A DNA stretch of 64,000 bases from a virus (IMGVR_UViG_3300007754_000007:1-64000), one strand, 5' to 3'; numbered from the stretch's first letter, positions 18,360 to 33,707 are shown. The notes: generated from the letters alone by a model not told the origin. Program-made: numbers and translations.

Positions 18360-18956
18360 AAGAAGTTCTGTAACAAAAGTGGTGCGTTCCTCCCCCTGGA
18401 GCTTCTGGAACTCCGACCATCGAACCCGGACAACCCGCCACCCACAGGCTTTGAGTTTTTCTGTCCTCCTCTGGTCGTGCCCTACAAGCCGAGGATCGAG
18501 ATAGTGCTGCTCTCCATCTATCTCGAGATCTACTCGTACATCGGGAAACGCGAAATCGAGACGATACGTGCCGAGGGGGAACTGTTCTTCAAACACAAGA
18601 CCTGCATTCTCTAAACACGTCTTCCAGTAGATCTCAGGATAGCTGGGTCCTTTGCTGTAGTGATTCACCGCGTACCCTGCACGCGAGGGGTTGTCCTGGA
18701 TGAACTTCCGCAGGGAGAGGCTTATCTTCTCGCGGGTCTCGGGGCTGTGTCTTCTTCGCTTCCCGGCGGCAGAAAACTTCTGTCTGATTTCTTCAGGCCA
18801 GGTTTCCCAGGTCCCTTTTGTGAACTGGTTCTGTCCTTTCTTCCCCAACATCCCCCGAGGATGCTCGGCTCGGTCCGGATTTTCCCGACATAGCCGCTCG
18901 TGCTGTGCTTTGGAGTTCCTGTTCTTCCGGGGAGATCCGCAGTATTGACATTCCAT
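18303..18956 (-). CDS. Vsr-like (DUF559-type) homing endonuclease
   Basis: 217 residues. The N-terminus has a zinc finger (CQYCGS...HERLC), then a helical segment resembling NUMOD-type DNA-binding repeats (SPETREKISLSLRK), then a Vsr/DUF559 nuclease core: YRLDFAFP, VDLEIDGEQHY, HDQRRTEKLKACGWRVVRVRW. This fits the EDxHD homing endonucleases related to I-Bth0305I. The C-terminus runs through the tRNA-Lys 5' exon and stops inside the intron, so endonuclease and intron are physically joined. It probably cleaves intronless tRNA-Lys alleles, helping intron spread; that target is inferred. tRNA-Lys(CTT) lies just upstream. Confidence 0.82.
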   Translation of the reverse strand: MECQYCGSPRKNRNSKAQHERLCRENPDRAEHPRGMLGKKGQNQFTKGTWETWPEEIRQKFSAAGKRRRHSPETREKISLSLRKFIQDNPSRAGYAVNHYSKGPSYPEIYWKTCLENAGLVFEEQFPLGTYRLDFAFPDVRVDLEIDGEQHYLDPRLVGHDQRRTEKLKACGWRVVRVRWSEFQKLQGEERTTFVTELLGSLAQLGEQRTFENGSPQ

Positions 18957-19001
18957 GGCACGTGGGAGATATAGTTTCGCTAAAGCAGCTAACCAAAGCA
19001 G

Positions 19002-19074
19002 TGAGTCGCCCGGGGTTCGAACCCGGCATTTCCGGTTTAAGAGACCGGTGCCTCTCCACAGATGCGTGCGACCC
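19002..19074 (-). tRNA. tRNA-Lys (CTT)
   Basis: Cloverleaf with acceptor GGGTCGC/GCGACTC (one G-U), anticodon arm CCGGT-CTCTTAA-ACCGG and T arm CCGGGTTCGAACCCCGG. The D stem is imperfect. CCA not encoded. Confidence 0.85.
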
Positions 19075-19154
19075 AAATGGAGCAGAGGGATAACAAGTCT
19101 GGCCTGGACCTGCTGGGTTGAGCTCGAGCCTCCCTCTGCGGGGACTCGGGCAAA

Positions 19155-20070: not shown

Positions 20071-20955
20071 CTATAGGCCCCGTCGGTATTTCCTTCCCTT
20101 CTGCCAACCTTCTACAAGCCATTTGGGGAGCTCGTGTTCCCGAACTCTCTTGGCCTGTCCAGAAGGGCCACACACCCAAACCCGAGGGGCCATTCCTTTT
20201 CTCCATCCCAAGGCTGTAACCCTCTGGGCCTCCTCCGGAGAGACTTTCCTCTCTTCTTGACCCAAATGGACCCAACAGAATCCCTTGGTCAGAGAAGGCT
20301 TGCCTTGTAGGTGTCTCTTGGCTGCTTTGGATATCTTTAGGCGGCCTTCAGGGGAGATTTTACAAGCGCGTCCGAGTACCCACCCCCGTCTCTGCATTTC
20401 TTCCAGGTCTCCCGGAAGAATGAGAGATTCCCCCTGTTCTGTGTGATTGACATAGATCCTTCCAACAGGATCGGGACGGATTCTTGACAGAAGGGGTGTC
20501 ATTTTCTCTCTGAACCGAGGCCCCCGCCCCCGCTTCCAACCCAGAACCATCCACTCCCCGACCACTTCCTTCCGGACCTTCCGAGGTTTCTCGCCTTCCA
20601 TCCAGACCCAGACCTTTCCGTACTGAGAGTTCTTTGGGCCCTTCTGGGCGTCGTACCAGCCGGGGCTCTCCACACCTCCTTCCATCAAGTTGTAGGTATC
20701 GGCGCGCTTGGCGAAGGCTGCTGTTACGAGCTCCTTCTCCTTCGCATAGGCTTCGGATCGGGTCTCGAAAATGAACAGGACTTCCTTGGTGAACTGGTCT
20801 CGCCCGTGCTTCAAGATGGCGGACTGGAGTACGGAACCGGATCCGAGGTAGGCGTCGTTGGGGTCCCGGGTCTTGTGGACTCCGATGTAAATCTTTCCGT
20901 TGGCGAGACAGGTCGTTCTGTAGACGGTGAAAACGACAGGAGGTAGGGAAGACAT
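20071..20955 (-). CDS. GIY-YIG homing endonuclease, copy 1
   Basis: 294 residues. The N-terminal GIY-YIG domain (about 1-95) has [20 protein letters not shown], a catalytic Glu in AYAKEKELV and the terminal YNLMEGG. The C-terminal half has repeated segments of the type [15 protein letters not shown] and GWxxGRGP, typical of sequence-specific DNA binding in phage homing endonucleases. It lies directly after a truncated tRNA-Asp(GTC); the upstream DNA (CCATTTTAGATTGGCTATCG) is nearly the same as upstream of copies 2 and 4. Its expected target is tRNA T-loop DNA. Confidence 0.92.
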   Translation of the reverse strand: MSSLPPVVFTVYRTTCLANGKIYIGVHKTRDPNDAYLGSGSVLQSAILKHGRDQFTKEVLFIFETRSEAYAKEKELVTAAFAKRADTYNLMEGGVESPGWYDAQKGPKNSQYGKVWVWMEGEKPRKVRKEVVGEWMVLGWKRGRGPRFREKMTPLLSRIRPDPVGRIYVNHTEQGESLILPGDLEEMQRRGWVLGRACKISPEGRLKISKAAKRHLQGKPSLTKGFCWVHLGQEERKVSPEEAQRVTALGWRKGMAPRVWVCGPSGQAKRVREHELPKWLVEGWQKGRKYRRGL

Positions 20956-20988
20956 ACCCTCCCCCGATCGATAGCCAATCTAAAATGG

Positions 20989-21047
20989 CGAACCCCCGGC
21001 CTCCGGAGTGACAGTCCGGTGCTACCTGCCAGCTGAGCTACATCCCC
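20989..21047 (-). pseudogene. tRNA-Asp (GTC) 5' fragment, cut in the T loop
   Basis: The minus strand has acceptor GGGGATG, a D arm and anticodon arm CGGAC-TGTCAC-TCCGG as in tRNA-Asp, then GGGGGTTCG, and at that point switches to the endonuclease leader (CCATTTTAG). The 3' T stem and acceptor are missing; I found no matching CATCCCC 3' end nearby. Confidence 0.75.
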
Positions 21048-21070
21048 TGACGCCTCCGAGGAGGCAAGGG

Positions 21071-21280
21071 TCAACTCTCCAAGTCGGCGATGTGGATTTC
21101 TCCCCCGCTGATCTTGGTGTGTACCCCTTTGGAATTGATGACCACGTCATCGTATCCCACGGAACCTTCGATCGAAACCCACGCACTGCCGCAGCAGCCG
21201 CAGCCTGAGATCTCAGCTCCGTACTTCTTCATGACCTTGGCAATCTCCTCAGAGAACGCCAACCACCTTGCCTTATCCAT
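21071..21280 (-). CDS. Small protein with GCGCCG motif
   Basis: 69 residues, N-terminal helix, then SGCGCCGSAW (three Cys close together) and a beta-rich C-terminus. AGGAGGTTCTC precedes the ATG. The Cys cluster may bind metal. Function unknown. Confidence 0.75.
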   Translation of the reverse strand: MDKARWLAFSEEIAKVMKKYGAEISGCGCCGSAWVSIEGSVGYDDVVINSKGVHTKISGGEIHIADLES

Positions 21281-21342
21281 GAGAACCTCCTGGTGTCTAC
21301 CGACGACTTCCAGAGGGCTTCGGGGTTCGGCTATGTGAGAAG

Positions 21343-21416
21343 TAGGTGAGACAGGACTCGAACCTGCGACCCCCGACGTGTAAAGACGGTGCTCTCCGCT
21401 ACTGAGCTACTCACCT
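21343..21416 (-). tRNA. tRNA-Val (TAC)
   Basis: Perfect acceptor stem AGGTGAG/CTCACCT, anticodon loop TTTACAC, T arm GCAGGTTCGAGTCCTGT. One mismatch in the anticodon stem. CCA not encoded. Confidence 0.9.
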
Positions 21417-21494
21417 ATAAGATGGAGGCCACTTCGGAACTCGAATCCGATCCACCCCCATACCACAGGGGCGAGCATCCCATGACTCAGCGGC

Positions 21495-21908
21495 CTAAAT
21501 GTCTTCCGAGTCCGCCCAGGAGGTTGCCTCGGGAAGCTCTGTCTGGAACTCGGGAACGGAGGGAGCGTCCTCAGGGATCTGAGTCTTCATGTTCTTCGCC
21601 ATCGCTGCGGCGAACTCGATGCCCTCGGGATGTTCCTCGAAGTAGATGTCCCTCTCGGCATCGGTGGTCTGGCGCCACGTACCGTCGGGGTCTTGTGTGT
21701 AGTAGTAGGAGTCCGGCTTCCCGGTCCAGAAGCCCAGGCCCGTAGCGAAGAGCATCAGGGTCTCGGGATCTCCCTCTGGGACTTCGGGCTCGAAGACGAA
21801 CTCGCAGAGGAGGTGGGTGATCGGCGGGAACCGCACGTCCCTGATCGTCTTCCCGACCAAGAGCTCTCGGAGGGCCTCTTGGGATTTGCTCGTGGTGTAC
21901 AGGCCCAT
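21495..21908 (-). CDS. Hypothetical protein
   Basis: 137 residues starting MGLYTTSKS with CCGGAGGCACT upstream. Mixed alpha/beta with an acidic C-terminus. No family recognised. Longer frame upstream is non-coding in character. Confidence 0.75.
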   Translation of the reverse strand: MGLYTTSKSQEALRELLVGKTIRDVRFPPITHLLCEFVFEPEVPEGDPETLMLFATGLGFWTGKPDSYYYTQDPDGTWRQTTDAERDIYFEEHPEGIEFAAAMAKNMKTQIPEDAPSVPEFQTELPEATSWADSEDI

Positions 21909-22077
21909 AGTGCCTCCGGGGGCATCCAGGAGTCCCCCAGGCAGCACTACCTGAGGGCTTTGGCTCCTTCTGGCGGCCCAGAATCCAACCCCGGGCGGAC
22001 AGGGAACCGTGTATCCTGGCCTACGGAGCGAGTTACCGCTCGTCAGACTATCTGACCTGTCCATACAGGAGCATCTC

Positions 22078-22479
22078 ATGAAGCCTGATCCCCGCCGTGT
22101 CGCTGCTGCTTTCCTTCGGTCTCAAGCTCTCAAGAAGAAAGCGGGAGAGGAAGTGACCAAGACGTTCGAGGTGACAGCCCATCCGGATACCATGGAGGTG
22201 TTCGAGAGCTTCCTCGCCTTCCTCCACTACAACGGAGGACACTCGGCGATCTTCGGGATGGCCTTCGACGGCGACGGCCATGATTTCTTGAGGGTCGATC
22301 CAGCCCCGGACAAGAAGTACTCCCAGGCAGCCCAAAACATCGGCGGAGCCGGCCCGGAGCTCGAACTCGCCAAGGGGCGCGACGGCTACGAGGCGCTCAA
22401 CATCGACCGGGACAAGCGTTCCTGGCACATGGGACTCGAGGACAAGGAACCCTCCCAGTATGAGGACCAGGAAGAGTAG
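22078..22479 (+). CDS. Hypothetical protein with MKPxxxRVA leader
   Basis: 133 residues beginning MKPDPRRVAAAFL, similar to the start of the gene at 38598 (MKPSAARVAKKW). A central globular part with FGMAFDGDGHDF is followed by an acidic C-terminus. CAGGAGCATCTC precedes the ATG. The basic helical leader shared by two otherwise unrelated proteins suggests a targeting role (inference). tRNA-Ala on the other strand begins 4 nt downstream. Confidence 0.75.
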   Translation: MKPDPRRVAAAFLRSQALKKKAGEEVTKTFEVTAHPDTMEVFESFLAFLHYNGGHSAIFGMAFDGDGHDFLRVDPAPDKKYSQAAQNIGGAGPELELAKGRDGYEALNIDRDKRSWHMGLEDKEPSQYEDQEE

Positions 22480-22483
22480 GTGA

Positions 22484-22557
22484 TGGAGCCGGTGAGATTT
22501 GAACTCACAGCCTGCTGCGTGCGAAACAGCTGCTCTGCCAATTGGAGCTACGACCCC
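22484..22557 (-). tRNA. tRNA-Ala (CGC)
   Basis: Cloverleaf with acceptor GGGGTCG/CGGCTCC (two wobble pairs), anticodon arm GCTGT-TTCGCAC-GCAGC and T arm GTGAGTTCAAATCTCAC. The loop gives CGC; no G3-U70 identity pair other than G3-T is needed, and a G-T pair is indeed at position 3-70. CCA not encoded. Confidence 0.87.
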
Positions 22558-22571
22558 ATAGAAGTGTGAGA

Positions 22572-22647
22572 TGGAAGGGGTGGCCGGATTCGAACCAGTC
22601 TCCTCGAGGGCCAGAACCTCGTGTGCTGCCAGTTACACCACACCCCT
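22572..22647 (-). tRNA. tRNA-Gln (CTG)
   Basis: Perfect acceptor AGGGGTG/CACCCCT, anticodon arm CGAGG-TTCTGGC-CCTCG, T-loop TTCGAAT, encoded CCA. With tRNA-Gln(TTG) it covers both Gln codons. Confidence 0.92.
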
Positions 22648-22661
22648 GAAATCTACAAGTT

Positions 22662-22822
22662 CTAAGATCTTCTCCCCGGAACCCACCCGGCAGCAATAAG
22701 CTCAGCTGCCTCCTCGGGGGAGCAGCGGCGAGTTTCCCCGAGGGGGGCATACCCACTTTTTCCCAGAAGCGCCCGGAGCCCTATGTCCCGTCGTGAGGAT
22801 TTCCGCAATTCTCGCATCCCAT
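22662..22822 (-). pseudogene. Remnant of homing endonuclease coding sequence
   Basis: MGCENCGNPHDGT, then a stop, then GSGRFW in the same frame corresponds to the zinc finger CxxCGxxHxGxYGSGRFC at the start of the endonuclease at 27687-28418, with Tyr changed to stop and Cys to Trp. Further on, another frame ends CSPEEAAELIAAGWVPGRRS, resembling the C-terminal repeats of the GIY-YIG proteins. It therefore looks like decayed endonuclease DNA between two tRNAs. Confidence 0.55.
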
Positions 22823-22847
22823 AATCCGCCCAGGTCTTGAACCTGGG
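22823..22847 (-). pseudogene. tRNA T-arm remnant
   Basis: CCCAGG-TTCAAGA-CCTGGG is a perfect T-arm-like hairpin followed by GCGGATTA as acceptor 3' strand, without a matching 5' part. It adjoins the endonuclease remnant. Confidence 0.5.
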
Positions 22848-22873
22848 AAGGCTTGGTTATAGGGCGGCTATTA

Positions 22874-22958
22874 TGGCGGGCCAGGCTGGACTCGAACCAG
22901 CATAGAGCTTTCACTCACGGGTTAACAGCCCGTTGTTCAACCTTTGAACCACTGACCC
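22874..22958 (-). tRNA. tRNA-Asn (GTT) with a long variable region
   Basis: Acceptor GGGTCAG/CTGGCCC, anticodon arm CGGG-CTGTTAA-CCCG, T arm GCTGGTTCGAGTCCAGC and encoded CCA. Between anticodon and T stems there are about 16 nt (TGAGTGAAAGCTCTAT) that can form GAG/CTC pairs, unlike the 5-nt variable loop of usual tRNA-Asn. The GTT anticodon supports Asn. Confidence 0.85.
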
Positions 22959-23013
22959 AGAAATACGGACAGGGTATTGACCCTATCGGAAAAGGTGGTT
23001 GTAGGAGCCCCCC

Positions 23014-23526
23014 ATGACCTATCGGAATCTCCGAACCCTGCTCGCCGAAGAAGGGATTCTCACCACCGCCTCTCCGCGAGGAGGTATGAAGCGGTTCAAG
23101 GTCCAATCTCGAGGAGGGAAGGGAACTGTCCTCCTGACCCCCGCCCAGGCCAAGCTTCTCAAGCTGGTTCCGGGAGGTCGGGGACGGCGCTGGGAGGTCG
23201 CGTTCTTCCGAGGCTACGTTCGGGGTGTCGTGTGGGAGAGGGAGGCTCGGAACCCGTCGGAGACTCCCCACAAGAAGCTTCGACAGGCGGAATCCATGGG
23301 CCTCTCCAAGCTGCCCAGGGAAGGGAGCAAGAGAAGGTTCCGGGATACCGAGGGGAACATCATCTCGTTCGACTTCTTCGAAGGCCTCATCCACGGAAGC
23401 CGCTACTCGATTGATCTCCGGTTCTACATGCCGATGGAGCTGGAAGAAGACCAGGCGCGGGACAACCGCGAAAGGGAACGGAGGAACCCCACGCCCCCTA
23501 TTCCTCAGCCTTCGAACACCTGGTAG
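23014..23526 (+). CDS. LRxLL-leader protein, function unknown
   Basis: 170 residues starting MTYRNLRTLLAEEGIL, a member of the shared-leader group. The body is basic, with a beta-rich middle and a long charged Pro-ending tail (NPTPPIPQPSNTW). GTAGGAGCCCCCC precedes the ATG. If the leader is cleaved after AEE, a basic DNA-binding-like internal protein would remain (inference). Confidence 0.75.
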   Translation: MTYRNLRTLLAEEGILTTASPRGGMKRFKVQSRGGKGTVLLTPAQAKLLKLVPGGRGRRWEVAFFRGYVRGVVWEREARNPSETPHKKLRQAESMGLSKLPREGSKRRFRDTEGNIISFDFFEGLIHGSRYSIDLRFYMPMELEEDQARDNRERERRNPTPPIPQPSNTW

Positions 23527-23532
23527 AGATGA

Positions 23533-23606
<74 letters not shown>

Positions 23607-23721
23607 ACATGAGTGGAGACGACGGAGGGAACTGACCCCTCGTCCATAGGTTTTGCAGACCCAGGTCCACCTTGGTCGCCGTCGATAGTTTATCGTGCTC
23701 TCCTGTTCCAAGGAGGATTTC

Positions 23722-24069
23722 ATGTCGATCCAAGAGGACACCCAAGCGGTTCGCCAAGCAATGAAGGACCTGGGCATCCAGAAGGAGGCCTCTTGGGCTG
23801 CCCTCTGGGAGCGAGTCAAAGAGGCTCTGAGCGGAATCCCCGGTCTCAAGGTGGCAGCGCGCCATACCGACAAGGTCGACCCGAACTCCATGACGAACAT
23901 CTACTTCGGCCAGGGAGACCACAGCGCCTTCTACCTGATCACTCGCCACGCAGCGTGCCGGAAGAAGAACCAGATCGACAGGGCCCTCCGGGATGCTCTT
24001 CAGACGGACGAAGAGCGGTGGCTTGAGTCCGAGTGCTACCGGATGGTCCCCACTCGAGGGATCCTGTAG
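23722..24069 (+). CDS. Hypothetical protein
   Basis: 115 residues starting MSIQEDTQAV with GGAGGATTTC upstream. N-terminal helices, then a beta-rich half. It ends convergently 2 nt from the gene ending at 24072. No family recognised. Confidence 0.75.
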   Translation: MSIQEDTQAVRQAMKDLGIQKEASWAALWERVKEALSGIPGLKVAARHTDKVDPNSMTNIYFGQGDHSAFYLITRHAACRKKNQIDRALRDALQTDEERWLESECYRMVPTRGIL

Positions 24070-24071
24070 GG

Positions 24072-24389
24072 CTACCCGTCGGCAACGGGCGTCGTCAGGA
24101 GATGGGCTGCGGCAAGTCTCTCCAGAACCCGCTCGGTCTCCTGAACCAGCCAGTCCAAGCCATCTTGCGAGTAGACGTCAATGGAGTTGGAGACCCTGAG
24201 GTCTCCGGCGTCGTGGTCTGCGGTGACCAGAACGAGGGCAACCCCGTGGACTCGGTTCCCCTTTGGGATCTCTGCAACTGCCTTGGCCAGAGTCTTGGAC
24301 AGGATCCGAGGATCGTATAGCTCCTCCGCTGAGAGGGCTCCCAGGTCGTCCAAGGCTTCCTGTAGAGTCTCAGGCAAAGGAGCAATCAT
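24072..24389 (-). CDS. Hypothetical protein
   Basis: 105 residues starting MIAPLPETL, with AAGGACG upstream. Acidic helices and a hydrophobic strand (VHGVALVLVTADHD). It starts 18 nt after tRNA-Pro(GGG), so they are likely cotranscribed. Function unknown. Confidence 0.75.
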   Translation of the reverse strand: MIAPLPETLQEALDDLGALSAEELYDPRILSKTLAKAVAEIPKGNRVHGVALVLVTADHDAGDLRVSNSIDVYSQDGLDWLVQETERVLERLAAAHLLTTPVADG

Positions 24390-24406
24390 AGGTGTCGTCC
24401 TTGAAG

Positions 24407-24483
24407 TGGTCGGGGCGGCCGGATTCGAACCTGCGACCGCTCGGCCCCCAGCCGAGTGCGCTGCCAGACTGCGCCACTCTCCG
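24407..24483 (-). tRNA. tRNA-Pro (GGG), chimeric
   Basis: Anticodon arm CTCGG-CTGGGGG-CCGAG and T loop TTCGAAT are good, and CCA is encoded. But the acceptor stem (CGGAGAG with CGCCCCG) has two mismatches and the T stem one. Its 3' strand pairs perfectly with the 5' acceptor of the tRNA-Pro fragment at 25425-25482 on the other side of the GIY-YIG gene. It thus seems made of a foreign 5' part and the original 3' part. Confidence 0.8.
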
Positions 24484-24486
24484 AAT

Positions 24487-25392
24487 TTAGCGTCTCTTCT
24501 TCGAGCCCATTCCACGGACCCAACCCTCTTGGGAGTACCTCGTAAATTGGGTGGCTGGGATTTTACGTCGGGACCCAGAATTGTTGTGTATCCAGACACA
24601 CCCCCATTGAGAGTGTGTTTCCCCAGGCCTTCCACACTCTGGTCTTTTAGACCCTTTGTCGGGACTTTCCCTACCTCCCCGTGCCCATCCTTGACCTAAA
24701 TATGCCTTGACCTCGTTGTCTGAGACATACTTGTAAACCCCATCTCGGTTCATGAGGGTTTTGCCTTTTGAGAAAGGCTCAACACCCTTCCGCGCTTGGG
24801 AGATAGTTTTCCGGAACTTTGGGCTCCCTCCTGTCTCCCATCCCTTCTCCAGATAGGTTTGGAGATCTTGGGGAGGCACATATTTCATGTTTTCCCCGAG
24901 ATGGATACAAACCCGGCCCTTTTCCAAGGGGGGTGGGACAGGACGCTTGAAGTTGGGCCCTCTACCGCGAGACCATCCTTCCGCCAGAAACTGTCCCAGA
25001 TCTTCTTTTTTGACCTTGCGAGGCTTCTCGCCCTCCGCCCATATCCAGACAGTTCCGTGAGAGGGGTTTTTGGATCCCCGACGATCCCTGTACCAACCAG
25101 GGCCCTCCACTCCTCCTGCCATCACGTTGTAGGTGTCTGCCCGCTTGGCGAACGCTGCGGTGACGAGTTCCTTTTCCTTGGCGTATGCCTCAGCACGGGT
25201 CTCGTAGATGAACAGGATCTCCTTGGTGAAATGGTCTCGACCATACTTCTTCACGGCAGCGGAGATCAGCTTCCCTGAGCCCAGGTACGTGTCATGGGGG
25301 TTCCGCGTCTTGTGAACCCCGATGTAGATCTTCCCGTTGACCAGACAGGTTGTTTTGTAGACGGTGAAGACGGCAGGAGGCTTGGTAGGCAT
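24487..25392 (-). CDS. GIY-YIG homing endonuclease, copy 2
   Basis: 301 residues. GIY-YIG domain with [20 protein letters not shown], catalytic Glu in AKEKELV and YNVMAGG, then several C-terminal repeats with [29 protein letters not shown] and similar. It lies precisely between a tRNA-Pro(GGG) 5' fragment and a chimeric tRNA-Pro(GGG), with the stop codon 3 nt before the latter. The leader CCGTTTTGGATTGACTATCG is shared with copies 1 and 4. Confidence 0.93.
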
Positions 25393-25424
25393 ACCCTACA
25401 AGGGCGATAGTCAATCCAAAACGG

Positions 25425-25482
25425 CGAACCGACGATCTCCTGTCCCCCAGACAGGCGCGCTACCAGACTGCGCTACACCCCG
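25425..25482 (-). pseudogene. tRNA-Pro (GGG) 5' fragment, cut in the T loop
   Basis: Acceptor CGGGGTG, D arm, anticodon arm CCTGT-CTGGGGG-ACAGG, then GTCGGTTCG, where it switches to the endonuclease leader. Its acceptor 5' strand and T stem 5' strand pair fully with the 3' part found at 24407-24425. Confidence 0.8.
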
Positions 25483-25525
25483 TAGTTGGACCGCCTATTC
25501 CCGTGTACGTAGGTGGAGGCGTCGC

Positions 25526-25867
25526 ATGAAAAATCTGAGACGGATACTGGCTGAGGAGGGGATTTCGGATCCTATTCCGGTTCTCCGAGAACAGCACCGA
25601 GAACTCGAAAGCCAGATCCTTCGGTTCGAAGGATCTCCCGGCCCTGGAGGGGCTCGTAGGCTTCTTCAGTTCATCCTTCAACACCTACCTGAACACTTCC
25701 GACTGGAGGAGTCCAATGGGGTTTCTGGATGTCAATGCGATGAGCACCCAGGTATCCTCAATTCCGCTCGGGAGGCCCTTCAGATGAGCAATCCCTTACA
25801 GGCCACTCAGAGCTTGGTTCAGCGAATCCGAGAACATAAGTCTCGTGAAGAGGAAGCCTGGGTATGA
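25526..25867 (+). CDS. LRRIL-leader protein with hemerythrin-like (HHE) domain
   Basis: 113 residues. MKNLRRILAEEGI is the shared leader. The rest has the spacing of an HHE cation-binding four-helix bundle: EQHREL in helix 1, HLPEHFRLEE in helix 2, CDEHPGIL before helix 3 and IREHKSREEE in helix 4. Such domains bind di-iron or other metals. The match is by pattern only. AGGTGGAGGC precedes the ATG, and the next gene overlaps by ATGA. Confidence 0.65.
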   Translation: MKNLRRILAEEGISDPIPVLREQHRELESQILRFEGSPGPGGARRLLQFILQHLPEHFRLEESNGVSGCQCDEHPGILNSAREALQMSNPLQATQSLVQRIREHKSREEEAWV

Positions 25868-26184
25868 GTACTGTCTCCCTCACTGATCCCAGGATAGCCG
25901 GAAGGATCCAGGCCTCTGAGATTGAGGGTCATACCTGCCAGGTCCTGTTCTTCGAGTGCCCTCTCTGCCCCCAACACCTGCACGCTATCCATTTCGGAAC
26001 GTGCGTGGGAACGGGGGTGATGCATTGGGACCACATTGGAGGGTCCTCTGTAGAGGACCTGACGATATCCCCGAGCTACCTTGCTCGAAGTCCCCGAGGA
26101 GGCCGGAGTCCTCGGAAGTGTCGGCTACACATCTACATTCGGTCGGGGATCATGGAGATCCTGCCTGACTCGAAGTTTGGGTAG
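25864..26184 (+). CDS. DUF6527-like zinc protein
   Basis: 106 residues. CPLCPQHLHAIHF, then W and DLTISPSY, then CRLHIYIRSGIMEIL follow the order seen in DUF6527-type phage proteins (Cys/His pair, W, LTLSPS, CHxxIxxG). Function of that family is unknown; a zinc site is likely. It overlaps the preceding gene (ATGA) and its last 60 nt overlap the opposite-strand gene ending at 26125. Confidence 0.6.
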   Translation: MSTVSLTDPRIAGRIQASEIEGHTCQVLFFECPLCPQHLHAIHFGTCVGTGVMHWDHIGGSSVEDLTISPSYLARSPRGGRSPRKCRLHIYIRSGIMEILPDSKFG

Positions 26185-26385
26185 CAGGGCGGGAACCCAA
26201 GGGGCGTTGAGCCAGCCTTGTTGTTCCTCTGGCGAGAGATCCCGCCACCAGAGCCCTCCTTGCCGACAGAGTAGGTGGTGGGCCAGGTCGATGAGGTCGT
26301 CGATGACCCCGTTCTTGTATCCGGGAACCCGCCGTCTTCGTACCTTCATGTAGAAGTAGTCGAGGAACTGGTCTCGGACGTTCAC
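26125..26385 (-). CDS. Hypothetical protein
   Basis: 86 residues, basic N-terminus (KVRRRRVPGYKNG) and Trp-rich middle. GTG start overlapping the stop of the upstream gene (GTGA). Its 3' end overlaps the plus gene ending at 26184. Function unknown. Confidence 0.65.
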   Translation of the reverse strand: MNVRDQFLDYFYMKVRRRRVPGYKNGVIDDLIDLAHHLLCRQGGLWWRDLSPEEQQGWLNAPWVPALLPKLRVRQDLHDPRPNVDV

Positions 26386-26651
26386 GCAGCCTCGTCCTCC
26401 TTGGAGGTCTGGTTGATCAACCGACCCGAACGGATCTGCTTGGAACTCAACCCAATCAACCCTTGTTCCGAGGAGCCGGCGACCTCGCAGGCCCAGTCGC
26501 TGAAGAAGGCTTCGCGGAGGATCCTGTAGTGGATCCCGCCGGGGAGCTCCCAGACCTGGCCTGGGGAGATCTCCGTCTTCGGGGTCTTGAACCCCTTGAA
26601 GTAGACAAGCGTCGATAGGACGCCGAGGAAGAATCCGAGGGCGAAATCCAT
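26382..26651 (-). CDS. Small protein with N-terminal membrane anchor
   Basis: 89 residues starting MDFALGFFLGVLSTLVYF, a single hydrophobic helix, then a soluble part. GGAGAACCTC precedes the ATG and a CGTAACATTCCC motif 19 nt further up overlaps the stop of the GIY-YIG gene. Function unknown. Confidence 0.7.
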   Translation of the reverse strand: MDFALGFFLGVLSTLVYFKGFKTPKTEISPGQVWELPGGIHYRILREAFFSDWACEVAGSSEQGLIGLSSKQIRSGRLINQTSKEDEAA

Positions 26652-26674
26652 GAGGTTCTCCGTGTACGGGAATG

Positions 26675-27490
26675 TTACGTCCCTTGGCTGGTCGGAGAAA
26701 CCTTTGGTCGGGGAGTCCCGAGAGGCCAGCAAGATACGCAATGGTCCCGACCGCCTACGTTCCGCCACTTCCCATCTACCTCAACCCAGGTAGGGAAACG
26801 GGTCTCGCAGGAACCGCACTCATGGGAAGATTTTGGTTTCGGAGTCCTCGGTGGCTTGATCTTCCGCCCCCGGACCCAGCCTTGAGCCTTCCATTCAGGG
26901 AGTTCTGCTTTGGGGATCTTGCGGGACTTCTCCCCCAACTTGCATATCCAGGCTGTGCCGTGTTGAGAGTTCTTTTCTCCTCTATGAGTCCCTCGGTCAG
27001 CCATAGTGGTCTTCATCTTGGCTTTGGTCTCCTCGGAGTGCTTCCGACCCTTCCAAACATTTTGGAGATGTTTGGTGTTTTGGGCTCTGCGTTGTGCGGC
27101 CCATTCAGGGTCTTCCCAAAGCCTTTTTCGCGCTTCCGCCGCACGGAGAGAGATTCTTTTCCATTCCTCAGCGGTCCGGTTTTGAGCCACATAGCCCCAA
27201 CCACCATCCCCTCCAGGGCGGAGGTTGTAGGTGTCTGTTCTCTTGGCGAAGGCAGCGGTGACGAGACCCTTTTCCTTGGCATATGCCTCGACTCGGGTCT
27301 CGAAGATGAACAGGACTTCCTTCCGGAACTGATCCCGTCCGTATTTCTTGACAGCCAGGGAAATCAGATTCCCAGACCCAATGTATGCGTCGTTGGGATC
27401 CCGAGTCTTGTGGACTCCGATGTAGATCTTGCCGTTGACCAGGCACGTTGTTCGGTAGACTGTGAAGACGGGCTCGGGCAGGGTAGGCAT
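26675..27490 (-). CDS. GIY-YIG homing endonuclease, copy 3
   Basis: 271 residues. GIY-YIG domain ([34 protein letters not shown]), then a NUMOD3-like helical repeat (KHSEETKAKMKTTM), a GTAWICKLGEKSRK segment and a C-terminal Cys cluster (CGSCETRF...CVSCW). Its C-terminal half differs from copies 1, 2 and 4. Upstream it follows a tRNA-like 3' end but not the T-loop junction of the others. Confidence 0.92.
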   Translation of the reverse strand: MPTLPEPVFTVYRTTCLVNGKIYIGVHKTRDPNDAYIGSGNLISLAVKKYGRDQFRKEVLFIFETRVEAYAKEKGLVTAAFAKRTDTYNLRPGGDGGWGYVAQNRTAEEWKRISLRAAEARKRLWEDPEWAAQRRAQNTKHLQNVWKGRKHSEETKAKMKTTMADRGTHRGEKNSQHGTAWICKLGEKSRKIPKAELPEWKAQGWVRGRKIKPPRTPKPKSSHECGSCETRFPTWVEVDGKWRNVGGRDHCVSCWPLGTPRPKVSPTSQGT

Positions 27491-27524
27491 GCCCTACCAA
27501 GAGCAATAGTCTGGATAAAAAAGG

Positions 27525-27600
27525 AGGCGTGGGGAGTCGAACCCCAAGGCTTGTAGACTGTTCGCGGAGGCTTGGGTTGAAAACCCAAGCGAGTGCGGCA
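27525..27600 (-). pseudogene. tRNA-like sequence with unusual variable region
   Basis: A good T arm (TGGGG-TTCGACT-CCCCA) and acceptor 3' strand CGCCTCC are preceded by about 20 nt and a perfect hairpin TTGGG-TTTTCAA-CCCAA (anticodon would be TTC). No D arm or matching 5' acceptor (GGAGGCG) is found. Probably a decayed or rearranged tRNA. Confidence 0.5.
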
Positions 27601-27605
27601 GTGAG

Positions 27606-27663
27606 AGAAGACGTTAGTCTCCGGATCCAAATTCCGGCGCTGATCCAAACAGCTTTCACCCCC
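27606..27663 (-). pseudogene. tRNA-Gln (TTG)-like 5' fragment
   Basis: GGGGGTG, a D arm (AGCTGTTTGGATCAGC) and anticodon arm CCGGA-ATTTGGA-TCCGG look like tRNA-Gln, but no T arm or acceptor 3' strand follows. Confidence 0.5.
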
Positions 27664-27667
27664 AAGA

Positions 27668-27730
27668 TGGCGCCTCTGGTAGGACTCTAACCTACGACCT
27701 CTCGATTCGCGGTCTGGTCCCGAAGAGGCT
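27668..27730 (-). pseudogene. tRNA 3' part with encoded CCA, D arm lost
   Basis: T arm GTAGG-TTAGAGT-CCTAC and acceptor GCCTCT/AGAGGC with GCCA end are intact, but the part between acceptor and T arm is too short for D and anticodon arms. The endonuclease gene above it reads into this element and stops inside it. Confidence 0.55.
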
Positions 27731-28418
27731 GAGATGGTATCGAGTAGTAGAGACTCCGGTGATCCTCTATGGTAAACCATAGAGGTGTCGCGCCAAGAAC
27801 GCGCGCACGTTTTTCTAAAAGGACTCTCTTCTTCCCTTGTGATTCGTTGTAGCCCCTCCAGAATGCATTCTGCCGGGGATGGGCCCACATTTTACACTCT
27901 ACAAGAAAGGGTCCCTCCTCAGTCTCTATGTAGAAATCCGGGAGGTACCTGCGAGACACCCCAGTTTCATCCGTATAAGTGATGACTTCAGGGCACCTCT
28001 GTATTGAAGAAACCGTATGGTTCTTCTCGAACCATACCAAGCAAACGTATTCCAGTTTGCTGTCGCAACGGATAGGAGTTCCTTGGAAATCGTAGGTGCA
28101 CCGGATAGCTTGGGAGGATTCCTCCCCTGCTTGCAAGGAGGCTATTCTGCGTTTGGAAATAGCTTCCCTCCAAGCAGGATCCTTAGCCCGGTCTTTCATG
28201 CTGCAGGACCTTGAGCAGAATCGGTTGGTTTTCCTACTCCGAGGTCGGAACGGGGTTCCGCAAAAAGCGCAAGGGATCTTTGGCCTCTGCTTTTTCTGCT
28301 TCAACGTCTTGCTGACGCGAGCGTTGATATACCTTCGTGAGCAAGCCTTGGTGCAGAACCGCCCAGACCCATAATCCCCAGTGTGAGGTTTTCCACATTG
28401 TTCGCAGCTTTTCGTCAT
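27687..28418 (-). CDS. Zinc-finger homing endonuclease (Vsr/DUF559-like)
   Basis: 243 residues from MTKSCEQCGK. Two treble-clef-like zinc fingers (CEQCGKPH...YGSGRFCTKAC and CAFCGTPF...RFCSRSC), a helical part, then a nuclease-like core: IRCDSKLEYVCLVWFEKN, YLPDFYI, FLVECKMW. The D-(x)-E-(x)-K spacing (PDFYIETEEGPFLVECK) is that of PD-(D/E)xK nucleases. The C-terminus ends inside a truncated tRNA. A role in homing is inferred from this position. Confidence 0.75.
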   Translation of the reverse strand: MTKSCEQCGKPHTGDYGSGRFCTKACSRRYINARVSKTLKQKKQRPKIPCAFCGTPFRPRSRKTNRFCSRSCSMKDRAKDPAWREAISKRRIASLQAGEESSQAIRCTYDFQGTPIRCDSKLEYVCLVWFEKNHTVSSIQRCPEVITYTDETGVSRRYLPDFYIETEEGPFLVECKMWAHPRQNAFWRGYNESQGKKRVLLEKRARVLGATPLWFTIEDHRSLYYSIPSQPLRDQTANREVVG

Positions 28419-28450
28419 CCCAACAGGTCTGAGTATAAACAAGTGAGTAG

Positions 28451-28524
28451 TGCGCCCAGGAGGACTCGAACCCCCAATCCCGGGATCCGTAGTCCCGTGC
28501 CTTATCCAGTTGGGCCATGAGCGC
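28451..28524 (-). tRNA. tRNA-Arg (ACG)
   Basis: Complete cloverleaf with acceptor GCGCTCA/TGGGCGC, anticodon loop CTACGGA and T arm GGGGGTTCGAGTCCTCC. The ACG anticodon needs A34 deamination to read all CGN codons. CCA not encoded. Confidence 0.93.
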
Positions 28525-28548
28525 AGAATGGGCATAGTCGGTTGACGC

Positions 28549-28566
28549 AAAACCCCCAGAAGGGGG
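28549..28566 (-). terminator. Hairpin terminator candidate
   Basis: On the minus strand CCCCC-TTCT-GGGGG is followed by TTTT. It would end transcription coming from the tRNA-Arg(CCG) side, upstream of tRNA-Arg(ACG). Confidence 0.6.
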
Positions 28567-28642
28567 GCGGGGGACTCGGGACCACTGCCCAACTCTGCCG
28601 TGTCCTGACCTGATTACATGCGCCCAAAGGGTTGGTTTGTCT

Positions 28643-28918
28643 TCACAGGCTTCGTGGGACAGAGGTGGCGTCGCGAGCGTTTAATCTCCCGTAGGAGAAC
28701 CACTTGTCATTTCCACCGGGCAACTTGATGATTCCCACTCTCCCGCCTCGCGGCGGATGTCTCGCGTAAACCGAGGAATCCGTAGTACCTGGAATCTCCC
28801 CTGCTTGACCGCTGAGCCACCAGCAAGCCAAGCCGAAGTTGTTTCGGAGTGTCGCCCCCTTTACCGCAACCCGAATGGGCTGGCAGGTGACAACTTCTCC
28901 CGGGGCAGACGCTCCCAC
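28643..28918 (-). CDS. Possible small protein
   Basis: A GTG-started frame of 91 codons; its second half reads like a protein (VGIIKLPGGNDKWFSYGRLN). No family or good ribosome-binding site. It is the only feature I see in the 540 nt between two tRNA-Arg genes besides the terminator, so the region may instead hold a decayed element. Confidence 0.35.
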   Translation of the reverse strand: MGASAPGEVVTCQPIRVAVKGATLRNNFGLACWWLSGQAGEIPGTTDSSVYARHPPRGGRVGIIKLPGGNDKWFSYGRLNARDATSVPRSL

Positions 28919-29066
28919 TCCCTGGTGAGGAGAGGCTTCGTTAGGGATCGGTCACGGTCGGTTCCCTCCCCCCTCAGGGGTTGGTGAGCCGCCGTCCGAC
29001 GTCTGACCCGTTGACAATCCATATTCGCGATTTCAAAGAAGTCCTGGTCTGTACCAGGAAAGCGAG

Positions 29067-29140
29067 CGCGCCCAGGAGGACTTGAACCCCCAACCTCGAG
29101 TTCCGGAAACTCGCGCTCTGTCCAGTTGAGCTATGGGCGC
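29067..29140 (-). tRNA. tRNA-Arg (CCG)
   Basis: Complete cloverleaf: acceptor GCGCCCA/TGGGCGC, anticodon arm CGAGT-TTCCGGA-ACTCG, T arm GGGGGTTCAAGTCCTCC. CCA not encoded. Confidence 0.93.
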
Positions 29141-29151
29141 TAAACGCGAGA

Positions 29152-29179
29152 ACCCCGGCTTCCCTTTCGGGGCCGGGGT
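29152..29179. terminator. GC-rich hairpin, terminator candidate
   Basis: ACCCCGGC and GCCGGGGT form a perfect 8-bp stem around a 12-nt loop, followed by CCTTTCGGTTT on the plus strand. It marks the upstream border of the minus-strand tRNA cluster. Confidence 0.5.
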
Positions 29180-29238
29180 CCTTTCGGTTTCAGCGTTGGT
29201 TTGCTGCTACCTCAGGGACCCCTCCCCGGCCTTCGCGG

Positions 29239-29478
29239 TTGCATCCTGATTCCGATGATCTTCTGGACGCACCACGACTGGCCGAATCTCCGTACCAGGG
29301 CGTCGACAGACACCCGTGGCTCCGGTCCCGATTTGGGCAGCAGCGTTGGTGGAAGAGAAGAACACGTTTTGGTCTCGGGTATGCGACCGGGGCCGCCGTT
29401 CTACATTCGGTATACCGCCTGATCGGGACTGCGAAAACCCCCTGCCCTAAAAACTTCCTCGGAGTCCATCCCGAATAG
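29239..29478 (+). CDS. Possible small protein
   Basis: 79 codons from a TTG; the middle (QQRWWKRRTRFGLGYATG) and a hydrophobic stretch look protein-like, but there is no ribosome-binding site and no ATG or GTG in frame. It is the only coding candidate in the 380 nt before the gene at 29523. Confidence 0.35.
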   Translation: MHPDSDDLLDAPRLAESPYQGVDRHPWLRSRFGQQRWWKRRTRFGLGYATGAAVLHSVYRLIGTAKTPCPKNFLGVHPE

Positions 29479-29522
29479 CTGAGCTATATGCATGGGCGGG
29501 TTGTACTGTCTACGGAGAGATC

Positions 29523-30098
29523 ATGTCCCTCAACAAAAAAGATTTGGCTCTGACTCAAAAGATCAATGCTCAACTAAACCCTACGACACATATGGCGGTT
29601 CAAAAGACCATGTCTCATCAAGATATCTCTCGCCTCCCTGCCGTCAAGGACCTCATGAACAGGGTCCGCCGGGACAAGAAGATCGAGAAGTATATCCAGG
29701 ACCAGTTCCGGGCCTACTTCGATCGGAACAAGAACCAGCCTGCTGTCTCCCCCGGGATGGGCCGTATCCTCGGTGATGAGTTCAACGCTTCCCTTCTCGA
29801 GCATGCGGACCGTGCGGTGCAGAAGGCGTTCATCATCCTGCAGGACCAGTCGGGCCTCGACGAGGATGACCTCCTGGACGCCCTGGACGCTGAGGTCATC
29901 AGCTGGCTCAACCGCGAGTACCCTGACCGCGTGCAGGATCAGATCCTCTCCGAGATGGCGGCGGACCACGTCGACCAGATGGACTACGAGCGGGATCCCT
30001 CCGGATACCACGGCGTCCGGAACCGGGACTTCCTCGCGGGCGGGCGGGAAGAAACCAAGAAGGCTGCGGCTCTCGAGCAGAAGCTCTTCGGGGCGTAG
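29523..30098 (+). CDS. Helical hypothetical protein
   Basis: 191 residues, almost wholly helical and charged, with an Ala/Lys-rich C-terminus. ACGGAGAGATC precedes the ATG. First gene of a plus-strand unit that runs to 30793. The size and helical content would fit a virion or scaffold-like protein, but nothing proves it. Confidence 0.8.
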   Translation: MSLNKKDLALTQKINAQLNPTTHMAVQKTMSHQDISRLPAVKDLMNRVRRDKKIEKYIQDQFRAYFDRNKNQPAVSPGMGRILGDEFNASLLEHADRAVQKAFIILQDQSGLDEDDLLDALDAEVISWLNREYPDRVQDQILSEMAADHVDQMDYERDPSGYHGVRNRDFLAGGREETKKAAALEQKLFGA

Positions 30099-30144
30099 TT
30101 CCTCAGAACCCTCTGCGGTGCGCCATCCGGATCCCATCCCCCTC

Positions 30145-30276
30145 ATGATCGTGGGGTTGGGAGAGGAACTCCCTCTCGAAGTGCTCTACGCTGAAGAGCA
30201 TGCTCAGGACCTCTTCCGAAGGTGGGATCCCTCGGAACTGAGAGCAGATGCTATGGCCCAGAGAGAGGTCGTGTAG
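30145..30276 (+). CDS. Possible small acidic protein
   Basis: 43 codons (MIVGLGEELPLEVLYAEE...). No ribosome-binding site. The opposite strand also shows a protein-like frame here (30103 to about 30320) that lacks a start codon, so the region is ambiguous. Confidence 0.3.
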   Translation: MIVGLGEELPLEVLYAEEHAQDLFRRWDPSELRADAMAQREVV

Positions 30277-30313
30277 GACGCCGAGACGGTTGCACTCTGG
30301 GTTCCAACGGGAC

Positions 30314-30793
30314 GTGATTCGGTACGTGTGGCCGGTGAAGTTCCCGATCGCCAAAGAGAACCTGGTCCTTGCCAAGGATGTCTCTGCGGGAGACAAGCCT
30401 GCGGTGGGGGACAAGGTCACTGTGGAGATCTTCGGGAAGGACCGCGAAGGAACCGTCAAGAAGATCCACTCCTCCGGCGACATGGCTGACGTGGACTTCG
30501 GGAAGGGCGATGTCTATGGGATCACCTTCTCCCGGATGAAGAGCGCCTCCCAGGATGTCTCCGCTGCCATGGACATGACCGACTGGAAGCCCCACGAGCG
30601 TTGGGACGGTCTTGTTGGGCTCCGCGCGGGTACGGAGATCTACATCGACGGGAAGGTGATCGGGATCGCCGTCGCTGACGGCCTCGCGAAGAAGAGAGGC
30701 CGTCAAATCCAGCTTCGGGTCCAGGACGTCGGAGGCGGCACCAACGAGGTATTCCTGGGTCCCGAAGACATCCGCGCCCTGGCCCGGATGTAG
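30314..30793 (+). CDS. Hypothetical protein with KOW/SH3-like segment
   Basis: About 160 residues; start uncertain (GTG at 30314 or 30326, TTG at 30290). The middle part VGDKVTVEIFGKDREGTVKK resembles a KOW/SH3-like beta barrel. It ends convergently 2 nt from the gene ending at 30796. Function unknown. Confidence 0.7.
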   Translation: MIRYVWPVKFPIAKENLVLAKDVSAGDKPAVGDKVTVEIFGKDREGTVKKIHSSGDMADVDFGKGDVYGITFSRMKSASQDVSAAMDMTDWKPHERWDGLVGLRAGTEIYIDGKVIGIAVADGLAKKRGRQIQLRVQDVGGGTNEVFLGPEDIRALARM

Positions 30794-30795
30794 GC

Positions 30796-31086
30796 TCAGC
30801 GAGCCTCGCGGAGAATCTGAAGAGGGCGAGCGTCCGCGCCGACCCCGACGCTCATGGTGCCGTTGTGCATGAACGCGGCCCAGCCGGATTCCTCTCCCTG
30901 GAACAGCATCAGAGGCCCCTGGTTGGTCAGCCTCCACCCCTTGAAGGTGGCTCGCTGATCCTCTCTTCCGTCGTAGATCCAGTACGACTTCCCCGCCTTC
31001 ACATCCTCGGGGCCCATCCCTCGGGCCTCAACAGGCTTCGGTACGGGAAGAAGATTCTCTTCAGCCAGGATTCTACGTAGGGACAT
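30796..31086 (-). CDS. LRRIL-leader protein, function unknown
   Basis: 96 residues starting MSLRRILAEENLL, the shared leader, followed by a Pro-rich spacer and a beta-rich domain with several Trp. AGGAGTACCCC precedes the ATG. The likely cleavage point after LAE, by analogy with T4, is inferred. Confidence 0.78.
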   Translation of the reverse strand: MSLRRILAEENLLPVPKPVEARGMGPEDVKAGKSYWIYDGREDQRATFKGWRLTNQGPLMLFQGEESGWAAFMHNGTMSVGVGADARPLQILREAR

Positions 31087-31140
31087 GGGGTACTCCTACT
31101 CGGGAAGGAGGGATACCTCCACTACCGTTCCTGGAGGGCA

Positions 31141-31446
31141 CTATCTCCTACGTTGGGCCTCTCGACGACGCGTCCTGTAGACCTTGGTCTTCCGGGCAGG
31201 ATCCTGCTTGGCAATCCACTGCACGGCCTTGGCATACTCAGGATTGGCTAACAGCCCCTCTACGCTGGCGAGACTGGATCCCTCGGCGGCCAACTCACGG
31301 TTCGAGAAGAACCGGTGAATCGTGGAATGACACATCGCACAGATGTCCACAGTGAGGTTCGGATCCACCTTCCTTGTTCGTAGGTGGTGCTCCGAGATCC
31401 TCCGCTCCGGTACGTCTCTCTTACAGAGCGGACAGTTCTGGGTCAT
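31141..31446 (-). CDS. HNH nuclease-like protein
   Basis: 101 residues with CPLCKRDVPERRISEHHL, CAMCHSTIHRFF and a basic tail. The CxxC...HH...CxxCHxxIH order is the HNH/zinc fold of small bacterial and phage HNH proteins. It starts 16 nt after the GIY-YIG copy 4 stop, so the two nucleases may travel together. Confidence 0.85.
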   Translation of the reverse strand: MTQNCPLCKRDVPERRISEHHLRTRKVDPNLTVDICAMCHSTIHRFFSNRELAAEGSSLASVEGLLANPEYAKAVQWIAKQDPARKTKVYRTRRREAQRRR

Positions 31447-31461
31447 CGGATGTACCCGGGA

Positions 31462-32319
31462 TCAAGATTCTTTCCAGGTCTTTCCTCGGACAACGTGATG
31501 GATCGCCACATAGGAGACCTCAAACCGGGCGGCTAAAGACGCCTGTGTTGTCCCTCCCTCTCGATATATTCTCCGAATCTCACGTACCTTTTCCCAGGTG
31601 AGCTTGGCAAGAGGATGATTTTCCCCGGAAGAGGGCTGGCGGGTTTTAGGTGGTCTCCTCCCGAGACTCCATCCCTCTTGGAGCATAGCTTGGACTTCCG
31701 ATTCGAAGATCTTGCGGGCCATCCCTTTTGGAGGATGCATCCAAACCCGGTTCTGTCTCTGTTTACCCCTCCACCCTTGAGCTTCCCATTTCGGGACTTC
31801 TTCTGGAAGAACGTAGAGTGTCTCTGAGCCTTTGGACATCCGAACCTTCCCTTTGATCGGGGAAGGTCTCGGAGGCCCGCACCTTTTCCCACGCCCCCGC
31901 TTCCAACCCAGAACCATCCACTCCCCCACCACTTCCTTCCGGACCTTCCGGGGCTTCTCTCCCCCCATCCAAATCCATACTGTTCCGTGTTGGGAGTTCT
32001 TTTCTCCCTTCTGGCCGTCGTACCAGCCTCCGATTGCCCCACCTTCTCTCAGGTTGTAGGTATCGGCGCGCTTGGCGAAGGCAGCGGTGACGAGCTCCTT
32101 CTCCTTGGCGTATGCCTCGGCTCGAGACTCGAAAATGAACAGGACTTCCTTCTGGAACTGATCTCGCCCGTACTTCTTGACAGCCCGCGAGATCAGATTC
32201 CCTGAGCCCAGGTAACGGTCGTCGGGGTCTCGAGTCTTGTGAACGCCGATGTAAATCTTGCCGTTGGCAAGGCAGGTCGTTTGATAGACGGTGTAGACGG
32301 CAGGAGGTTTGGTAGGCAT
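31462..32319 (-). CDS. GIY-YIG homing endonuclease, copy 4
   Basis: 285 residues. GIY-YIG domain ([34 protein letters not shown]), C-terminal repeats like copies 1 and 2 (GTVWIWMGGEKPRKV, GWKRGRG, GWSLGRRP), then an HTH of the type HPLAKLTWEKVREIRRIY followed by TTQASLAARFEVSY, common at the end of homing endonucleases. It follows a tRNA-Leu(TAA) fragment cut in the T loop; the leader CCATTTTGGTTTGGCTATCG is shared with copies 1 and 2. Confidence 0.93.
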   Translation of the reverse strand: MPTKPPAVYTVYQTTCLANGKIYIGVHKTRDPDDRYLGSGNLISRAVKKYGRDQFQKEVLFIFESRAEAYAKEKELVTAAFAKRADTYNLREGGAIGGWYDGQKGEKNSQHGTVWIWMGGEKPRKVRKEVVGEWMVLGWKRGRGKRCGPPRPSPIKGKVRMSKGSETLYVLPEEVPKWEAQGWRGKQRQNRVWMHPPKGMARKIFESEVQAMLQEGWSLGRRPPKTRQPSSGENHPLAKLTWEKVREIRRIYREGGTTQASLAARFEVSYVAIHHVVRGKTWKES

Positions 32320-32351
32320 GCCCTAAACGGGCGATAGCCAAACCAAAATGG

Positions 32352-32419
32352 CGAACTGACAAACTCACAAGGAGCGACGCATTTTAAGTGCGATGTGTAG
32401 ACCCTTCCACCACGGGGGC
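32352..32419 (-). pseudogene. tRNA-Leu (TAA) 5' fragment, cut in the T loop
   Basis: Acceptor GCCCCCG, a Leu-type D arm, anticodon arm CGCA-CTTAAAA-TGCG and long variable arm, then CAGTTCG, where it switches to the endonuclease leader. No CGGGGGC 3' end is found downstream. It begins 8 nt after the DUF4419 gene. Confidence 0.78.
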
Positions 32420-33629: not shown

Positions 33630-33707
33630 CAGGTGAGGGCGCTTGCCTTCAATGCCTATGACGATGATCAAGTTGAACCAGGAGGCCCAAGAACCCTCAG
33701 AAGTGGA

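What the first reader, a model, noticed from the sequence alone, without database searches (positions are those of the whole stretch)
20071..32419. GIY-YIG endonuclease genes inserted at the same point of the tRNA T loop
Copies 1, 2 and 4 each follow a tRNA (Asp-GTC, Pro-GGG, Leu-TAA) cut exactly after the T-loop sequence GTTCG, and from there all continue with nearly the same leader (CCATTTTGG-TTGGCTATCG-like) to the start codon. The T loop is the most conserved tRNA sequence, so an endonuclease cutting there could invade many tRNA genes. The identical junctions are seen in the sequence; the insertion mechanism is inferred. I know of free-standing homing endonucleases near phage tRNAs, but not of a family with this fixed T-loop junction.
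Basis: partly seen in the sequence, partly recalled or inferred. Interest (0 to 1): 0.87.

Follow-up and report, generated by a model that had tools for sequence, protein, structure and literature searches.

The report
Endonuclease genes that rebuild invaded tRNAs
In this bacterial virus, copies of a DNA-cutting selfish gene have landed at the same point inside three different tRNA genes, and in one case the gene brought a replacement for the part of the tRNA that it cut off, leaving a hybrid tRNA gene.

Summary
Three SegB-like GIY-YIG genes (c1, c2, c4) each follow the 5' part of a different tRNA (Asp-GTC, Pro-GGG, Leu-TAA). Each 5' part stops at the same base of the T loop (GTTCG|), and a shared leader follows. 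DNA similarity between the copies begins there, and matches to intact phage tRNAs end there. The "intact" tRNA-Pro there is a hybrid: its 3' part (AATCCGGCCGCCCCGACCA) is the missing half of the truncated tRNA-Pro upstream. Rejoined, the halves pair 12/12, form a perfect cloverleaf and match 78 intact phage tRNA-Pro stretches. As it stands, the downstream tRNA has two acceptor mismatches and one T-stem mismatch. So c2 is a true T-loop insertion, carrying a second tRNA-Pro 5' part that rebuilds a tRNA. c1 and c4 lack their 3' halves, so there insertion is inferred. T6 SegB was published in 2026 with cleavage motif RAWTSGAAC, the complement of the T loop, so T-loop cutting is not new. I found no report of the fixed junction or the tRNA hybrid. 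Related genes in other phages also abut tRNA 5' ends, some behind 5' remnants. Cleavage and function are untested.

The parts
20989..21047 (-). tRNA-Asp(GTC) 5' part, ends at T loop ...GGGGGTTCG (no 3' half found nearby)
20956..20988 (-). shared leader of c1 (CCATTTTAGATTGGCTATCG...)
20071..20955 (-). c1 GIY-YIG endonuclease ORF, 294 aa, SegB-like
25425..25482 (-). tRNA-Pro(GGG) 5' part X5', ends at T loop ...GTCGGTTCG
25393..25424 (-). shared leader of c2
24487..25392 (-). c2 GIY-YIG endonuclease ORF, 301 aa
24426..24483 (-). second tRNA-Pro(GGG) 5' part B5' (CGGAGAG...GGTTCG), brought in at the 3' end of the insert
   Evidence: 43/58 identical to X5' with a different but self-complementary anticodon stem
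24407..24425 (-). displaced 3' half X3' of the invaded tRNA-Pro (AATCCGGCCGCCCCGACCA)
   Evidence: pairs 12/12 with X5', 9/12 with B5'; X5'+X3' combination found intact in 78 viral stretches
32352..32419 (-). tRNA-Leu(TAA) 5' part, ends at T loop ...GTCAGTTCG (no 3' half found)
32320..32351 (-). shared leader of c4
31462..32319 (-). c4 GIY-YIG endonuclease ORF, 285 aa
26675..27490 (-). c3 GIY-YIG endonuclease ORF, 271 aa; same family, but not at a T-loop junction

Best explanation
c1-c4 are free-standing SegB-like homing endonuclease genes living in a phage tRNA array. The enzyme (inferred) cuts tRNA genes in the conserved T loop (GTTCG|AAT). Repair copies in a cassette that begins at a donor's T-loop junction. 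At c2 both ends were resolved at the T loop. The cassette [leader - endonuclease - second tRNA-Pro 5' part up to GGTTCG] sits exactly between GTTCG and AAT of the resident tRNA-Pro. The resident 5' part is left as an upstream remnant, and a hybrid tRNA-Pro (donor 5' part + resident 3' part) stands downstream. At c1 and c4 only the left end was resolved at the T loop; the right end joined elsewhere and the resident 3' half was lost. Shown: the junctions, the separated halves, the hybrid. Inferred: cutting, the repair route, order of events, and any function of the hybrid tRNA.
For: Same-base junction in three tRNAs and homology starting there. Matches to intact phage tRNA-Pro and tRNA-Asp end at that base. 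X3' pairs with X5' 12/12 (10 Watson-Crick, 2 G-U) but only 9/12 with the 5' part it is joined to; X5'+X3' folds as a perfect cloverleaf, B5'+X3' does not. X5'-type + X3'-type halves occur as one 73-nt stretch in 78 viral stretches, the closest 66/73 identical including the bases across the junction, whereas the B5'-type + X3'-type combination occurs only in this virus. The residues equivalent to SegB Y17 and G19 are conserved in all four copies. T6 SegB cleavage motif RAWTSGAAC = complement of the T loop, cuts within tRNA genes, and amplifies segB+tRNA by recombination (PMC13096335). In other phages, 29 related loci (28 after dropping one duplicate contig) have a tRNA starting within -45..+25 nt of the endonuclease stop, and upstream 5' remnants tend to pair with that tRNA's 3' acceptor strand (permutation p 0.0055).
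Against: c1 and c4 have no 3' half, so only c2 is proved to be an insertion. No close relative without the genes was found. In other phages the remnants end in the D arm or anticodon loop, and none at the T loop. The hybrid tRNA keeps an intact GTTCGAATC, so the insertion would not protect it from recutting. Cleavage by these particular proteins is untested.
Confidence: 0.72

Rival explanations
1. Two paralogous tRNA-Pro genes stood side by side; the upstream one lost its 3' half when the endonuclease gene arrived by ordinary recombination, and the downstream one is an independent tRNA that has drifted.
For: Both are Pro-GGG and 43/58 identical; phage tRNA arrays do contain duplicates.
Against: The 3' half matches the upstream 5' part fully and its own 5' part poorly. 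The upstream combination is common in phages while the downstream combination is unique to this virus. The junction falls exactly in the T loop, as in c1 and c4.
Confidence: 0.12
2. The endonuclease gene originally lay behind a complete tRNA ending in CCA; a short deletion joined the T loop (GTTCG) to the CCA tail (CCATTTTGG), and this unit then spread by recombination between tRNA genes without T-loop cutting.
For: The leader starts CCA in c1 and c4 (CCG in c2), as a tRNA tail would.
Against: Three different tRNAs share the same junction and c2 has its 3' half displaced downstream, which a deletion does not explain.
Confidence: 0.1
3. A self-splicing intron in the T loop that carries the endonuclease, so the tRNA would be restored by splicing.
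For: GIY-YIG endonucleases occur in group I introns, and this phage has a group I intron in another tRNA.
Against: No intron match at c1-c4, the ORF starts about 33 nt from the junction, c1 and c4 have no 3' exon, and c2 has a whole tRNA 5' part before the 3' half.
Confidence: 0.02

Closest known systems
SegB of phages T4 and T6 (free-standing GIY-YIG homing endonuclease in the tRNA array)
   Same: Same catalytic core, free-standing, in tRNA arrays; the T4 gene ends a few nt before a tRNA and follows another by about 40 nt. T6 SegB cuts tRNA genes with a T-loop motif and drives segB-tRNA amplification (PMC13096335).
   Different: T4 segB follows a complete tRNA, with no T-loop-truncated remnant. 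Window proteins are longer with repeated GWxxGR-type segments in the C-terminal part. Four copies lie in one 72-kb contig, three of them at the T loop.
Mitochondrial mobile ORFs that make gene hybrids (Allomyces atp6; Glomus atp6, atp9, cox2, nad3; PMC3630166)
   Same: An endonuclease ORF inserts in a gene together with a replacement for the cut-off part, and the resident part is left displaced.
   Different: There the target is protein-coding and the replaced part is the C-terminal end; here the target is a tRNA and the replaced part is the 5' end, in a phage. At c1 and c4 no hybrid was made.
tRNA-integrating elements with a tyrosine recombinase
   Same: They use tRNA genes as targets and restore the tRNA.
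   Different: They typically restore the 3' end and need an integrase (own knowledge); here there is a single nuclease gene and the 5' part is replaced.

Membership tests
SegB-like free-standing GIY-YIG homing endonuclease | GIY-YIG core with catalytic residues (SegB Y17 and G19 equivalents) | tested here: met
   Alignment A1: the KIYIG motif (Y23, G25) is invariant, as are E73 and N89; Pfam SegE_GIY-YIG/GIY-YIG hits lie near their cutoffs
SegB-like free-standing GIY-YIG homing endonuclease | Free-standing (not in an intron or intein) | tested here: met
   No intron match near c1-c4
SegB-like free-standing GIY-YIG homing endonuclease | Located in a tRNA array | tested here: met
   18 tRNAs called in the window; c1-c4 lie among them
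SegB-like free-standing GIY-YIG homing endonuclease | Cleaves tRNA T-loop DNA (RAWTSGAAC) | not testable with these tools
   Published for T6 SegB only
SegB-like free-standing GIY-YIG homing endonuclease | Promotes its own inheritance in mixed infection | not testable with these tools
   needs phage crosses
Endonuclease-borne gene hybrid (mitochondrial mORF type) | Both separated parts of the invaded gene still recognisable | tested here: met
   c2 only: X5' and X3' pair 12/12
Endonuclease-borne gene hybrid (mitochondrial mORF type) | Replacement part carried next to the endonuclease and diverged from the resident part | tested here: met
   B5' starts 3 nt after the c2 stop and is 43/58 identical to the resident part; its donor was not found
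Endonuclease-borne gene hybrid (mitochondrial mORF type) | Same arrangement at c1 and c4 | tested here: not met
   no 3' half found
Endonuclease-borne gene hybrid (mitochondrial mORF type) | Hybrid gene is expressed and functional | not testable with these tools
   needs RNA and charging assays
Group I intron | Ribozyme core around the ORF | tested here: not met
   Rfam finds one intron in the 20 kb searched, at 18335-18081, not at c1-c4

The most novel reading that the evidence does not exclude
These are T-loop-to-T-loop cassettes: phage homing elements that swap the 5' part of tRNA genes, anticodon arm included, and so rewrite tRNAs as they spread. Replacing the anticodon arm and variable loop, the parts that host tRNA-cutting defences attack, could favour the phage, so the element would remodel tRNAs rather than merely disrupt them.
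Probability: 0.25. Interest if true: 0.82.

Novelty: new variant of a known kind. Interest (0 to 1): 0.62.

Why it matters
It gives genomic footprints of what a T-loop-cutting homing endonuclease would leave: same-base junctions in unrelated tRNAs, and a tRNA rebuilt from two sources. It extends the gene-hybrid idea from mitochondrial protein genes to tRNA genes in phages, suggests why SegB-like genes sit against tRNA 5' ends, and offers a way for phage tRNA genes to be shuffled and truncated that tRNA-finding programs miss or call intact.

Tried and rejected
3' half for tRNA-Asp: the best 12/12 site (minus strand, 8912) lies in a coding region and has no T loop, so chance. Leu 3' half: nothing convincing. 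Rfam search of the region after c1: no tRNA. Leader motif in IMG/VR: 13 stretches, of which only the two from this same virus carry it behind GTTCG. Relatives through the gene upstream of c4: the same virus plus one distant hit. Genome collection: no tRNA-Pro with the exact B5' pattern, and three weak endonuclease relatives, not examined further. Other T-loop left junctions among 164 related loci: none convincing. Leader hairpin over the ribosome site: only c4 folds better than shuffles (z -2.1), so not claimed. PHROGs gave no hit for eight large ORFs, so the phage group is unknown. Integrase-type insertion: not pursued, since the element is a single nuclease gene.

Full report
What is in the sequence. 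The window is most of a 72,260-base virus record with 18 called tRNA genes, all on the minus strand. Four ORFs of 271-301 aa share a GIY-YIG core. Three of them (c1, c2, c4) are each preceded by a tRNA 5' part that ends at the same base, GTTCG, in the T loop, followed by a leader that is alike in all three. Appending a complementary 3' half makes ARAGORN accept each 5' part as tRNA-Asp(GTC), tRNA-Pro(GGG) and tRNA-Leu(TAA). blastn of the c2 and c1 regions against phage genomes gives hits to intact tRNA-Pro and tRNA-Asp that, among those listed, stop at that base; for c4 the longest tRNA-Leu hit stops one base short. DNA similarity between the copies starts in or just before the GTTCG and runs into the catalytic domain; the C-terminal parts differ. 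c3 is not at a T loop: its similarity begins about 20 nt before its start codon, behind a tRNA-like 3' end.

The hybrid tRNA. Three bases after the c2 stop codon begins a gene called tRNA-Pro(GGG), 24483-24407. Of the 18 called tRNAs it is one of only a few with acceptor mismatches (5 of 7 pairs). Its 3' part pairs 12/12 with the truncated tRNA-Pro in front of c2 and only 9/12 with the 5' part it is joined to. Rejoined across the insert, the resident halves fold into a perfect cloverleaf; the gene as it stands does not. A pattern made of the two resident halves finds 78 intact tRNA-Pro stretches of 73 nt in viral contigs; the closest is 66/73 identical and carries the same bases across the junction. 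The same pattern with the second 5' part finds this virus alone, and with that part's own expected 3' strand finds two other phages. Thus the insert is [leader, c2, second tRNA-Pro 5' part], lying exactly between GTTCG and AAT of a resident tRNA-Pro. The second 5' part is 43/58 identical to the resident one and has a different, self-complementary anticodon stem, so it looks like a separately evolved tRNA part and not a decayed duplicate.

c1 and c4. No 3' half for tRNA-Asp or tRNA-Leu(TAA) was found in the window. No intact tRNA-Asp or tRNA-Leu(TAA) was called in the window or in the rest of the record; the record may be incomplete. Here only the left junction is at the T loop; the phage appears to have lost these tRNAs.

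Mechanism. T6 SegB, a GIY-YIG homing endonuclease in a tRNA array, cuts within tRNA genes. Its enriched motif, RAWTSGAAC, is the complement of the T loop GTTCSAWTY, and it drives amplification of segB with its neighbouring tRNA through recombination that needs UvsX and UvsY (PMC13096335). The identification of that motif with the T loop is my reading; the passages I read speak of tRNA genes, not of the T loop. The window proteins belong to the same family and keep the residues whose loss kills SegB. The simplest account is T-loop cutting by such an enzyme and repair from a donor whose two ends both lie in T loops: the left end in a truncated tRNA before the gene, the right end in the tRNA after it. 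c2 is the complete outcome; c1 and c4 are one-sided outcomes. Cutting and repair are inferred.

Generality. Among 164 related loci from IMG/VR, 84 (72 unique) have a tRNA within 1 kb, and 29 loci have a tRNA starting between -45 and +25 nt of the endonuclease stop, often with the stop codon inside the tRNA. T4 segB has the same layout. Upstream 5' remnants pair with the 3' acceptor strand of the tRNA behind the gene more than permuted pairs do (28 of these loci plus the window; score 97.5 against 87.4, sd 4.0, p 0.0055), with clear cases in L060 and L176 (both Gly) and in this window. Those remnants end in the D arm or anticodon region, so the T-loop junction itself is so far special to this virus. 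The test rests on few loci that keep a readable remnant, it includes the window case that prompted it, and the choice of a D-loop pattern was mine.

Known and new. T-loop-motif cutting by SegB and SegB-tRNA neighbourhood are published. Endonuclease-borne gene hybrids are known for mitochondrial protein genes (PMC3630166). My literature searches found no account of a fixed T-loop insertion junction or of an endonuclease element that rebuilds a tRNA; the library lacks most subscription papers, and the original T4 SegB paper was not held. I class it as a new variant of a known kind.

Noticed in passing
window 18353-18016, minus strand: A tRNA (acceptor GGGTCTT/AAGACCC) is interrupted in the anticodon loop by a group I intron (Rfam 18335-18081, 57.9 bits). 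The DUF559/Vsr-like endonuclease ORF upstream (frame 18303-19076) ends inside the tRNA's 5' exon or the start of the intron.
   Followed up: partly
window 27687-28418, minus strand: A TnsA-like-N endonuclease ORF following tRNA-Arg(ACG) ends inside a tRNA-like gene (about 27670-27729) with poor D and anticodon arms: a second nuclease type with its 3' end fused to a tRNA.
   Followed up: partly
window 33708-33830, minus strand: tRNA-Leu(GAG) has mismatches in its acceptor stem; 39 nt upstream lies a 5' part (GCGAGGATGGCGGAACGGAATACGC) that pairs 7/7 with its 3' strand. A possible second hybrid, without an endonuclease gene between.
   Followed up: partly
window 33545-33631, minus strand: tRNA-Tyr has only 5 of 7 acceptor pairs; no 5' remnant found upstream.
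   Followed up: no
L018, L027, L030: Related endonuclease genes appear to sit inside a phage tmRNA gene: a GGGGATGGCCAGGTTTCGA-type 5' end upstream (L018; similar in L027) and a GGTTCAATTCCCGCC T arm just after the stop.
   Followed up: no
L130, L139, L142: 5' remnants of tRNA-Met-like genes end at the anticodon loop (CT|ATGA) before the late-promoter-like TATAAATA leader, with a full tRNA-Met after the endonuclease: perhaps a subfamily with an anticodon-loop junction.
   Followed up: partly
window 31141-31446, minus strand: A small ORF with a weak HNH-like match begins right after c4.
   Followed up: no
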